Of a stretch of DNA of 40,499 nucleotides, positions 1 through 14,653 are shown one piece after another. Made by a program: the position numbers and the translations under genes. Location of the stretch: assembly GCA_021848025.1 (NCBI GenBank), contig JAJZND010000015.1, positions 73,310 through 113,808 of the forward strand, in the 5' to 3' direction. The stretch comes from Microcaldota archaeon. GTDB taxonomy: Archaea > Micrarchaeota > Micrarchaeia > Micrarchaeales > CABMGC01. Numbering within the stretch: position 1 is the stretch's first letter; each line of letters starts with the position of its first letter. The notes beneath the pieces were generated by a model. That model searched no databases. It had not been told where the DNA came from and was given only the letters and a program-made list of their open reading frames with translations.

Positions 1-38
1 AAGGCTGACCCTGCACAAAAGTGAAGAAAGAAGCGCAT

Positions 39-110
39 CGCCCGAAGCAGGGATCGAACCTGCGACCTCATGGTTAACAGCCACGCGCTCTACCGCTGAG
101 CTATTCGGGC
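39..110 (-). tRNA. tRNA-Asn (anticodon GTT)
   Basis: On the minus strand the sequence folds as a full cloverleaf: 7-bp acceptor stem GCCCGAA/TTCGGGC, D stem GCTC/GAGC, anticodon stem CGTGG/CCATG with loop CTGTTAA (anticodon GTT), 5-nt variable loop, and T stem GCAGG/CCTGC around loop TTCGATC. The base after the acceptor stem is G, usual for archaeal tRNA-Asn. CCA is not encoded and no intron is seen. A TATA-like AT-rich block at about 139-151 lies some 30-40 nt upstream on the minus strand. Confidence 0.96.
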
Positions 111-161
111 AAGGGTTATGCTTATCCTTGCTCCGCTTAAATATTTAGTATTTGCTCTCCT

Positions 162-7272: not shown

Positions 7273-7347
7273 GGGCATGTAGCGTAACTTGGATAGCGCA
7301 TCTGGCTTCGGACCAGAAGGTTGCGGGTTCAAATCCCGTCATGCCCG
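7273..7347 (+). tRNA. tRNA-Arg (anticodon TCG)
   Basis: Full cloverleaf: acceptor GGGCATG/CATGCCC, D stem GCGT/GCGC, anticodon stem TCTGG/CCAGA with loop CTTCGGA (anticodon TCG, reading CGA), variable AGGTT, and T stem GCGGG/CCCGT with loop TTCAAAT. The discriminator is G, and CCA is not encoded. It is a close relative of the second tRNA-Arg at 12518-12592; the last 31 nt are almost identical. A decayed copy of its 3' end lies about 105 nt downstream (7452-7479). Confidence 0.96.
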
Positions 7348-7451: not shown

Positions 7452-7479
7452 GCTGTAGATTCAAATCCTTTCATGCTTG
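7452..7479 (+). repeat. Decayed copy of the tRNA-Arg 3' end
   Basis: Aligned by eye without gaps to the last 28 nt of the tRNA-Arg genes, 20 of 28 positions match, including the T-loop stretch ATTCAAATCC and the following TCATGC. No 5' half is present, so this is not a tRNA gene. Copies of a tRNA 3' end downstream of the intact gene are the usual footprint of tRNA-targeted integration, here much eroded. Only about 105 nt separate it from the tRNA, so any cargo is gone. Confidence 0.45.
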
Positions 7480-12517: not shown

Positions 12518-12592
12518 GGGCATGTGGTGTAACTTGGACAGCACGCCGGCTTCCGGAGCCGCAGGTTGCGGGTTCAAATCCCGTCATGCCCG
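12518..12592 (+). tRNA. tRNA-Arg (anticodon CCG)
   Basis: Cloverleaf: acceptor GGGCATG/CATGCCC, D stem GTGT/GCAC, anticodon loop TTCCGGA (anticodon CCG, reading CGG) on a stem CCGGC/GCCGC whose outermost pair is C-C, variable AGGTT, and T stem GCGGG/CCCGT. The discriminator is G and CCA is not encoded. It shares its ends with tRNA-Arg(TCG) at 7273. A 25-nt stretch of its 3' part (12566-12590) recurs at 14403-14427 with 23 of 25 identical, and a foreign tRNA 3' half starts only 4 nt after it. Confidence 0.93.
12566..12590 (+). repeat. Direct repeat, left copy (inside tRNA-Arg 3' end)
   Basis: The T arm and acceptor end of tRNA-Arg(CCG). It matches 14403-14427 in the same direction at 23 of 25 positions. 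Together they bracket about 1.8 kb, as attachment-site repeats would. Confidence 0.6.
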
Positions 12593-12596
12593 TCAT

Positions 12597-12637
12597 TTGA
12601 CACGCAGAAGACTGGAGTTCGATTCTCCGCGGGCCCA
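12597..12637 (+). other. tRNA-Val-like 3' half (attachment remnant or split-tRNA half)
   Basis: From the anticodon loop onward this reads as an intact tRNA 3' half: loop TTGACAC (anticodon GAC, Val), stem strand GCAGA, variable AGAC, T stem TGGAG/CTCCG with loop TTCGATT, acceptor strand CGGGCCC and discriminator A. A matching 5' half (starting GGGCCCG) is absent upstream; the preceding sequence is a complete tRNA-Arg. Pieces running from the anticodon loop to the 3' end are typical of integrase attachment sites. A trans-spliced split tRNA is the alternative, but the 4-nt gap leaves no room for the GC-rich pairing leader known from Nanoarchaeum. Confidence 0.6.
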
Positions 12638-12867
12638 CTTGAAAGTTCCGCATACGGACCCTAAAATCGGAAGGATATCGTATCCGGAGTGAAGAAATAA
12701 GCCCGGCGATAGAAAGTAGTGCTATTACTATCTTTATCTTGTCTTTCTATGCACCGGCATGATTTATCTCTCCGTTCTTGGTATCTTAAGGCTAACCTTG
12801 TTTCAGAGATTTAGCGTAAGAGTAATGGCAAAGCCACTTTACTCTACAGCATCTAGCATATTTCCAA

Positions 12868-14295
12868 TTAACCTTTTATACATGTAACTTCTTTTGGTAA
12901 GAATATTGAGAAATTGGTGCCGTTATAAACTAATTTTGATTGATTAATATTCCAAAAATATGAAGGATTTACTCCGAGATTCGGCAATTTGAATATTATT
13001 ATTGGATATTCTGTAGCAACAGTATTATTCAAAAACAAAGGCGAATATGCACTTTGGTTAAGGAAAATCAGATATGGCCATGAATTTGACTCTACACGGC
13101 ATCCTTGGTAACCGAGGCTATCTAATTCAAAAATAGAACTTCTTATAACCGAGCTATTAGAGTTAACGTTAACTTTGCTTAGGTAAGGCACGGCTTCCAG
13201 ATAAAATACAATGAATGAGATAACTAAAAGCAAAAAGGCGGCAATCACAATGTCTTTTAAAATTTTAGGGTTCTTTTTGATTTCTTTTTGCAATATTATT
13301 AATGCAAAGAGAGTTGCAGAAGTATATATTAAATAAGAATACCGTATCTGCCCGAAATAATCCGTATGTAAGGCTATAATGAAATATCCGAGGATTGCTA
13401 GGCATGAAAATAATATGGCGATTTTTGTGAATTCACTCTCCATCAATCTTGTTTTCACTTCGTTTTGAAATAATTTGAGGTTTCCCTTGAATTTATCACG
13501 TAATCCGATGAGTAGGTACACAAGCGGGACAAATAAGCCTATTAAAAATGGAAATACGGGAATTGAAATCGGGCCGCTTGTTGTGACGTTTAAGCTAACA
13601 GAACCTAAATAAGCGTATAGTGGATTTCCATAATATATATAATTAAATGCAAACCAAGGAATTGTGATTAGTATAAAAAGGGAATATGCTGCAACTATCT
13701 TCTTTCTGTTGCCAGCAAACAGCAGTAATGGCAAAAAGATTAGGTTAGGATATTTACTTAAGGCGGCAAGTCCTAGAAATAGGCCAGAAATAGGGCTTTT
13801 TTTGTATAAAAACCCGAGGGTTATTAGAAGAAATGAGACTGAAAGCACTTCCGCGCTATTTGCCAATAACGAAAAATATATGAAAAATGGGCTTAATATA
13901 AGACAATATGATAAAAGTTTGTCGAATTTTAGGGCTTTGCTGAAAAACCAAATTGATATAACAAAAATAAAGTATAAAATAATTGTATAGGGCAAGATTG
14001 GATTATGAAAAATTAATATTAATGGTACAAATATTGCGCTTGGCATTGCATCTCTTATCGGCTCTATATAAAATGTATTCTGTTGTATTTCCCAACCATT
14101 AATGTCTATATTAAAAAAATCCTTTTGAGAAAACCTATTATTAAGGTAACTTTTCGCGTTTAAATAATGAACTATAACGTCCCAAGCAGGTCCTGAAAAG
14201 TGATAAGACAATACTAATATGAACAGAAAGAGAACAGCTAGGCCTATAATAAGCTTCGTGCCTGATTCATCATTTGCGAGTTTATTTTTACCCAT
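12868..14295 (-). CDS. Membrane glycosyltransferase-like protein (GT-C/PMT type), AT-rich
   Basis: This 475-aa protein has about ten hydrophobic helices. A first helix at 14-33 is followed by an outside loop with PAWDVIVHYLNAKSYL, where the Asp matches the usual catalytic-site Asp of GT-C enzymes (PMT/ArnT type). Further helices run to about residue 350, and a C-terminal outside domain has several N-X-S/T sequons. Such proteins transfer sugars from lipid carriers to proteins or lipids; the substrate cannot be told. The gene is far more AT-rich than its neighbours and lies alone between copies of a tRNA-Arg 3' end, which points to horizontal transfer. The start is ATG, with no SD-like site noted. 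Confidence 0.8.
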   Translation of the reverse strand: MGKNKLANDESGTKLIIGLAVLFLFILVLSYHFSGPAWDVIVHYLNAKSYLNNRFSQKDFFNIDINGWEIQQNTFYIEPIRDAMPSAIFVPLILIFHNPILPYTIILYFIFVISIWFFSKALKFDKLLSYCLILSPFFIYFSLLANSAEVLSVSFLLITLGFLYKKSPISGLFLGLAALSKYPNLIFLPLLLFAGNRKKIVAAYSLFILITIPWFAFNYIYYGNPLYAYLGSVSLNVTTSGPISIPVFPFLIGLFVPLVYLLIGLRDKFKGNLKLFQNEVKTRLMESEFTKIAILFSCLAILGYFIIALHTDYFGQIRYSYLIYTSATLFALIILQKEIKKNPKILKDIVIAAFLLLVISFIVFYLEAVPYLSKVNVNSNSSVIRSSIFELDSLGYQGCRVESNSWPYLIFLNQSAYSPLFLNNTVATEYPIIIFKLPNLGVNPSYFWNINQSKLVYNGTNFSIFLPKEVTCIKG

Positions 14296-14402
14296 GTTCA
14301 GTTTATGTGTACAGACTTATTATATTTTGTGATGACGAGGTACTCCTGAACGAGCCGGGCGAATTTCTGTTCCACAGGAATCCAAACTACGGCTATGTTG
14401 GA

Positions 14403-14427
14403 TTGCGGTTTAAAATCCCGTCATGCC
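14403..14427 (+). repeat. Direct repeat, right copy of the tRNA-Arg 3' end
   Basis: 23 of 25 positions equal 12566-12590, including 15 identical bases in a row (AAATCCCGTCATGCC). The copy lacks the 5' part of a tRNA and is followed by GCCCG rather than CG, so it is a decayed duplicate. Confidence 0.6.
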
Positions 14428-14653
14428 GCCCGCCATTATCTGTAGTATCTGATAAGGATCCATACGGTGTGCATACACGGAATTGCCAATAACTGAAAGA
14501 TAAAAGTTTTCTGCCATCCTTTTGCAACGTGCGTCTGAAGCGATTTCCAAAACAGGCAACTCTCTAGTAAAATATTGGTATACAAGAGCAGGCATACTGC
14601 CTTTTATAGTTTCAGAAGTCCACTTTTCTTATCTATATTTGTTAGCTGGTCTG
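14403..14653 (+). promoter_or_regulatory. Promoter region of the MFS gene
   Basis: CTTTTATAGT at about 14600-14609 is the best TATA-like box before the ATG at 14654. A start of transcription near 14635 would leave a leader of about 20 nt. Confidence 0.35.

What the first reader, a model, noticed from the sequence alone, without database searches (positions are those of the whole stretch)
12518..14427. Eroded integrated segment at tRNA-Arg(CCG) carrying an AT-rich glycosyltransferase
The last part of tRNA-Arg(CCG) (12566-12590) recurs in the same direction at 14403-14427 with 23 of 25 bases equal. Between them is a single membrane glycosyltransferase-like gene of about 26% GC in the stretch I counted, against about 52% just outside. 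tRNA 3' ends are the usual attachment sites of archaeal integrases, so this looks like cargo left behind after loss of the integrase.
Basis: partly seen in the sequence, partly recalled or inferred. Interest (0 to 1): 0.7.

Follow-up and report, generated by a model that had tools for sequence, protein, structure and literature searches.

The report
Wreck of a tRNA-inserted mobile element
In a tiny uncultured archaeon (Micrarchaeota), a membrane sugar-transferase gene sits in the wreck of a mobile element that inserted behind an arginine tRNA gene; close relatives carry the working versions, some with two tRNA landing sites in a row that let the same element settle in two different tRNA genes.

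Summary
A complete tRNA-Arg(CCG) (12518-12592) is followed 1.8 kb on by an eroded same-strand copy of its 3' tail (23/25), and the one intact gene between them is AT-rich (32.5% GC, GC3 0.30; not 26%). The lost integrase is identifiable: directly behind the tRNA, 12593-12664 reads in frame as the 5' end of an SSV-type ("suicidal") tyrosine integrase gene, then a stop. That family is found in 42 of 60 related genomes, nearly always starting inside a tRNA tail. In the sister species (about 90% identity) the same tRNA-Arg(CCG) is followed instead by another integrase left end, identical over 27/27 bases to one in a different genus, and a different gene precedes the MFS gene. In a third genus it carries the same fragment with different cargo. 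The window's fragment contains a second, complete tRNA-Val tail (24/24) 21 nt behind the tRNA-Arg tail. Intact relatives show what such stacking does: one lineage (95% identical integrase) carries two tandem tRNA tails and sits in tRNA-Arg(CCT) by the inner tail in one genome and in tRNA-Arg(GCG)/(TCG) by the outer tail in others. The cargo protein has a GT-C glycosyltransferase fold; its substrate is unknown.

The parts
12518..12592 (+). tRNA-Arg(CCG), intact: the integration target; its 3' tail (12566-12590) is the left attachment repeat
   Evidence: ARAGORN; direct repeat
12566..12664 (+). 5' fragment of an SSV-type integrase gene reading out of the tRNA tail: LRVQIPSCP-SFDTQKT-GVRFSAGP-LESSAYGP-stop (TAA 12662-12664)
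   Evidence: Frame reading; 60% identity over 35 aa to the integrase 5' end behind tRNA-Arg(TCG) of G036, E 4e-10, DNA 73-75% over 84-92 bp
12614..12637 (+). second, complete tRNA tail inside the integrase fragment (tRNA-Val type, GGAGTTCGATTCTCCGCGGGCCCA)
   Evidence: 24/24 to tRNA-Val tails of relatives; 26/28 (12610-12637) to tRNA-Val(CAC) of the same genome; controls reach at most 17/24 apart from two 24/24 hits upstream of a tRNA
12868..14295 (-). 475-aa membrane protein, GT-C-fold glycosyltransferase: the cargo
   Evidence: AF2 pLDDT 84.8, pTM 0.87; Foldseek best hits ALG12 3.2e-4 and ArnT 1.1e-3; Pfam GT87 in 6 of 13 homologues, best 2.5e-7
14403..14427 (+). right attachment repeat: eroded copy of the tRNA-Arg tail; frame open as GLRFKIPSC (compare LRVQIPSC in the tRNA)
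14428..14569 (.). stretch with no similarity to the sister species, outside the right repeat; origin unknown
   Evidence: blastn against G001: homology resumes at 14570

Best explanation
An integrative element with an SSV-type (suicidal) tyrosine integrase inserted into the 3' end of tRNA-Arg(CCG). The attachment site of such elements lies inside the first codons of the integrase gene, so integration rebuilds the tRNA with the element's own tail, leaves most of the integrase gene directly behind the tRNA, and puts a second tail copy at the far end. Here the integrase gene later broke down to its first ~31 codons and the far tail decayed, leaving the GT-C glycosyltransferase as stranded, still open cargo. 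The element carried two tails in tandem (outer tRNA-Arg, inner tRNA-Val), so its ancestors could probably use either tRNA as target. Shown: tails, integrase fragment, AT-rich cargo, another element behind the same tRNA in the sister species, dual-tail use in relatives. Inferred: that the glycosyltransferase came in with this element, and that it modifies surface glycans.
For: Repeat and tRNA. Orphan tails lie almost only downstream and in direct orientation. Integrase family (PF00589) in 42 of 60 relatives; 59 of 73 integrase pieces lie directly behind a tRNA on the same strand, most with the frame open through the tRNA tail. Window integrase 5' fragment. Same fragment behind tRNA-Arg(CCG) of another genus (G013) with other cargo and its own right tail. 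Sister species G001: tRNA-Arg(CCG) followed by an integrase left end 27/27 identical to that of G004, where an integrase piece follows; no match to the glycosyltransferase, and before the MFS gene a NiCoT/UreH-like gene (family from reading the sequence) that has only a 46% paralogue in this genome. Dual tail: G003's right end carries Arg(NCG)- and Arg(CCT)-type tails in tandem; joined with its left end it matches G014's uninterrupted sequence at 263/296, control flank 18/60.
Against: No intact integrase and no clean empty site at this locus; the divergent stretch extends 142 bp beyond the right repeat. The sister genome is broken exactly here (contig ends 27 nt past the tRNA) and is 80% complete. 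The glycosyltransferase family occurs in 28 of 60 relatives, mostly away from tRNAs, and is not otherwise typical cargo of these elements, which is mostly toxin-antitoxin, ATPase and apparent methyltransferase genes. It could have entered separately.
Confidence: 0.88

Rival explanations
1. The glycosyltransferase is an old resident gene; an unrelated element once inserted and mostly vanished next to it, and the AT-rich composition is ordinary variation among membrane-protein genes.
For: The family is widespread in the order, with single copies at 26-40% identity. Right repeat and homology boundary do not coincide. Membrane proteins can be AT-biased.
Against: GC3 0.30 and the poorest codon fit of ten window genes; the MFS membrane gene next door has GC3 0.49. 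No match in the sister species, and another gene in front of its MFS gene. The gene lies between the two tails.
Confidence: 0.15
2. The tRNA-Val tail arose because a second, tRNA-Val-specific element used a tRNA-like motif behind tRNA-Arg as a secondary landing site (tandem insertion), not because one element carried two tails.
For: Integrase genes usually show a T-arm-like motif 17-24 nt behind the tRNA that could serve as a target. Tandem arrays exist (G040).
Against: The right ends of the window element and of G013's carry the outer (Arg) tail. In G003 both tails lie together at the right end while the element sits in tRNA-Arg(CCT), as a dual-tail element predicts.
Confidence: 0.3
3. The tRNA-Val piece is a 3' half of a split, permuted or pseudo-tRNA rather than part of an integrase gene.
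For: It matches a tRNA-Val 3' end exactly over 24 nt, and split tRNAs are known in some archaea (own knowledge).
Against: The copy in G013 lost its acceptor end. No matching 5' half was seen nearby by eye. The sequence continues as integrase-like LESSAYG. Same arrangement with other tRNA tails in G014, G007, G036 and G006.
Confidence: 0.03

Closest known systems
SSV-type / pT26-2-type suicidal tyrosine integrases and their integrated elements (review PMC8371274)
   Same: Target the 3' part of tRNA genes, keep the tRNA whole, have the att site inside the integrase gene so that integration splits it; related enzymes use many different tRNAs.
   Different: Here in Micrarchaeota (the review text never mentions DPANN or Micrarchaeota). 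Most elements delimited are 0.6-7.4 kb. The split is at the very first codons. Some carry two complete tRNA tails in tandem. The review's model for target switching is recombination between elements, not tail stacking.
Small genomic islands of 'Ca. Mancarchaeum acidiphilum' Mia14 (PMC5498576)
   Same: Same phylum (Micrarchaeota); [quoted passage not shown]
   Different: The passages read report the largest island in a protein-coding gene; no tRNA tail repeats or suicidal integrase are described there.
GT-C glycosyltransferases (ALG12, ArnT, PimE, GT87)
   Same: Predicted fold; invariant WD and YxE motifs near the N-terminus; weak GT87 matches in homologues.
   Different: No significant sequence match of the window protein itself to Pfam, NCBIfam or PDB sequences; substrate unknown.

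Membership tests
SSV-type (suicidal) integrase element | Insertion at a tRNA 3' end that leaves the tRNA complete | tested here: met
   ARAGORN tRNA-Arg(CCG) intact; sister-species homology ends 6 bp behind it
SSV-type (suicidal) integrase element | Direct repeat of the tRNA tail at the far end | tested here: met
   14403-14427, 23/25; directional excess over controls
SSV-type (suicidal) integrase element | Tyrosine integrase gene in the element | tested here: not met
   Only a 5' fragment remains in the window; relatives have complete genes with PF00589. The window locus is therefore a remnant.
SSV-type (suicidal) integrase element | att site inside the integrase reading frame, gene split by integration | tested here: met
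   Frame open through the tRNA tail in most relatives; G003 right end MTGIRVQISATP plus left end LKSSVYGSGF reconstitute the start found uninterrupted in G014
SSV-type (suicidal) integrase element | Recombination activity on the tRNA site | not testable with these tools
   needs in vitro or in vivo recombination assay
SSV or pT26-2 integrase clade (by descent) | Phylogenetic placement with those integrases | not tested
   no tree with reference integrases was built
GT-C glycosyltransferase | GT-C fold with multi-helix membrane core | tested here: met
   AF2 model and Foldseek hits ALG12, ArnT, PimE, PglB; weak E-values, prob about 1.0 for the first four
GT-C glycosyltransferase | Glycosyl transfer activity | not testable with these tools
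   needs biochemistry
Integron cassette array | Integrase at a fixed locus with attC-type cassettes | tested here: not met
   Integrases lie inside elements behind many different tRNAs; repeats are tRNA tails

The most novel reading that the evidence does not exclude
Suicidal integrases of Micrarchaeota change target by stacking: a new tRNA tail is captured in front of the old one within the integrase start, giving elements with two (or more) usable landing sites and leaving a fossil record of past tRNA targets in the first codons of the gene. The window locus (tRNA-Arg over tRNA-Val) would be one such record.
Probability: 0.45. Interest if true: 0.72.

Novelty: new variant of a known kind. 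Interest (0 to 1): 0.55.

Why it matters
How an integrase whose own gene contains its target sequence can change target is an open puzzle for archaeal mobile DNA: changing the site means changing the protein start. Elements carrying two tRNA tails in tandem, seen in one tRNA in one genome and in another tRNA elsewhere, give a simple, testable answer. The family also shows that very small, host-dependent archaea acquire toxin-antitoxin and other genes through very small tRNA-targeted elements, even down to a single gene between two tRNA tails.

Tried and rejected
An empty tRNA-Arg(CCG) site was sought in 60 relatives; the only syntenic genome (G001) is interrupted there. Pfam, NCBIfam, PADLOC and PDB sequence searches gave nothing significant for the window glycosyltransferase, so the fold was predicted. 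Glycosyltransferase relatives were checked for nearby tRNAs: one of 14 loci has one, on the far side of the gene, so it is not a regular passenger. A split or permuted tRNA reading was considered and dropped. No paper on Micrarchaeota with integrase and tRNA gene was found in the held library. Further integrase pieces between 12664 and 12867 were sought with 69 integrases; the part of the output shown gave only chance-level hits there.

Full report
What was checked. ARAGORN finds a complete tRNA-Arg(CCG) at 12518-12592. A 25-bp direct repeat of its 3' end lies at 14403-14427 with 23 of 25 bases equal; in the whole genome the tail occurs otherwise only in the two tRNA-Arg genes of the window. 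The 475-codon gene 12868-14295 (minus strand) has 32.5% GC and GC3 0.30, against 0.43-0.55 for nine other genes of the window, and the poorest codon fit.

Is the repeat chance? The last 26 bases of 106 tRNA genes of this and related genomes were scanned against up to 10 kb on each side. Orphan copies of at least 20/26 numbered 15 downstream in direct orientation (13 distinct), 0 downstream inverted, 1 upstream direct and 0 upstream inverted. So tail copies behind tRNA genes are a real and common feature in this group. Named homologous contigs show the group to be Micrarchaeota.

What lies between the tails elsewhere. In this same genome, tRNA-Asn has a 1.9-kb interval with an AbiEi/AbiEii toxin-antitoxin pair, and tRNA-Leu(TAG) a 5.8-kb interval with another AbiE pair and a copper-ATPase-like gene. 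In relatives there are PIN-domain pairs (0.6-0.75 kb), AAA_14/DUF4143 ATPases, a nucleotidyltransferase pair and integrase plus genes that read as methyltransferases. In G040 three small units, 1.2-1.8 kb each, stand in tandem behind tRNA-Leu, each ended by an exact 24-bp tail; the first holds an integrase, the second an ATPase, the third an AbiE-like pair.

The integrase. G003 and G014 hold complete tyrosine integrase genes (PF00589) directly behind tRNA-Arg genes. Relatives of this integrase occur in 42 of 60 genomes; 59 of 73 pieces lie directly behind a tRNA on the same strand, with Arg, Ser, Val, Lys, Leu, Glu, Ala, Pro, Gln, Ile and other tRNAs as targets, and most frames run open into the tRNA tail. 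In G003 the far end of the 7.4-kb element supplies the start codon and first codons (MTGIRVQISATP) and the tRNA side supplies the rest (LKSSVYGSGFKT...). That is the SSV-type arrangement in which integration splits the integrase gene.

The remnant in the window. Read in that same frame, the sequence behind tRNA-Arg(CCG) gives RVQIPSCP-SFDTQKT-GVRFSAGP-LESSAYGP and then a stop at 12662-12664. The integrase start behind tRNA-Arg(TCG) in G036 reads RVQIPSCP-FLWDMTQ-GVQISAAP-LKSSIYG: same length, 60% identical over 35 residues including the tRNA-encoded part, E 4e-10. The same fragment stands behind tRNA-Arg(CCG) of G013, another genus, with different cargo (an AT-rich nucleotidyltransferase pair) and its own right tail at about the same distance.

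The sister species. G001 is about 90% identical in DNA up to 12598 and again from 14570. Directly behind its tRNA-Arg(CCG) its contig shows 27 more bases, identical in 27 of 27 to the sequence behind tRNA-Arg(CCG) of G004, where it is the start of an integrase reading frame. So the same tRNA holds a different element there. Before its MFS gene G001 has a NiCoT/UreH-like gene (family named from reading its sequence) of which this genome has only a 46% paralogue, and no match to the glycosyltransferase was found in G001. Both statements are limited by the break in the G001 assembly.

Stacked tails. The window fragment contains a complete tRNA-Val tail (24/24) 21 nt behind the tRNA-Arg tail. Complete or nearly complete second tails at an offset of 17-22 nt behind tRNA-Arg genes occur in G014 (two loci), G013, G036, G007 and G006; shorter tRNA-like motifs at a similar offset occur in many intact integrase genes. 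The meaning is clearest in one lineage. In G003 the element sits in tRNA-Arg(CCT), and its far end carries an Arg(NCG)-type tail, 8 nt, ATGACGGGTATC and the Arg(CCT) tail. In G014, whose integrase is 95% identical, the element sits in tRNA-Arg(GCG), and the Arg(CCT)-type tail lies inside, 18 nt behind that tRNA. Joining G003's two ends in a script reproduces G014's uninterrupted sequence at 263 of 296 bases, while the G003 tRNA flank matches at only 18 of 60. The simplest reading is one element type with two tandem tRNA tails, used alternately. The window locus would be the eroded Arg-over-Val version. How the second tail is gained is inference. A secondary insertion into a tRNA-like motif is the main rival, disfavoured because the outer tail is also found at the far ends of the window element and of G013's.

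The cargo. Thirteen homologues align over their length with invariant G35, W38, D39, Y76, E78 and R81 (window numbering). The predicted structure (pLDDT 84.8) is closest to ALG12 and ArnT, that is, the GT-C fold; GT87 is hit weakly in 6 of 13 homologues. A role in transferring a lipid-linked sugar to surface polymers is inferred from the fold alone. Homologues occur in 28 of 60 genomes, without tRNA tails in nearly all of the loci looked at, so the family is not bound to these elements, and its arrival with this one is likely but not proven.

Known or new. Suicidal integrases and their choice among many tRNA genes are known in Crenarchaea and Euryarchaea (PMC8371274). Island genes including a XerD-family integrase are reported for a cultured micrarchaeon (PMC5498576). 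In the library searched I found no description of a tRNA-targeting suicidal integrase family in Micrarchaeota, nor of tandem tRNA tails as alternative sites. The window locus itself is a remnant; its interest comes from the family it points to.

Noticed in passing
window 7273-7347 and 7454-7479: tRNA-Arg(TCG) also has an eroded copy of its own tail about 105 nt downstream; the sister species has the same remnant only 17 nt behind the tRNA, so 112 bp here correspond to 20 bp there.
   Followed up: partly
window 38-111 and leftwards (L022, G000:C7:71451-73419): tRNA-Asn(GTT) carries a 1.9-kb unit with an AbiEi/AbiEii pair ended by a 26/26 tail copy, just outside the window.
   Followed up: partly
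L057 (G000:C23:6398-12300): tRNA-Leu(TAG) carries a 5.8-kb unit with an AbiE pair and a copper-ATPase-like gene; a remote C-terminal integrase trace follows, and an MFS paralogue (78%) of the window MFS gene lies at C23:15022.
   Followed up: partly
L023:3032-3717 (G000:C9:64032-64717): The genome's own integrase relative is a broken gene behind tRNA-Ile(GAT), with internal stops and a missing middle part.
   Followed up: partly
L195 (G040:C1, tRNA-Leu(TAG)): Tandem array of three small units (integrase / ATPase / AbiE-like pair), each closed by an exact 24-bp tRNA tail.
   Followed up: partly
integrase genes in L103, L104, L106, L107, L115, L121, L122, L124 and others: A T-arm-like motif GGGTTCRAATCC recurs about 22-24 nt behind the tRNA end inside the integrase start, sometimes again further on; possibly an extra integrase binding site or worn-out former tails.
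   Followed up: partly
G001:C39, G001:C25, G014:C13, G027:C30, G022:C11: Assemblies often end inside or near the integrase behind a tRNA, as expected if excised, integrated or multiple forms coexist in the samples.
   Followed up: no
L190 (G021:C27, tRNA-Tyr): Two tail copies 93 bp apart at the far end of a 5.4-kb integrase element.
   Followed up: no
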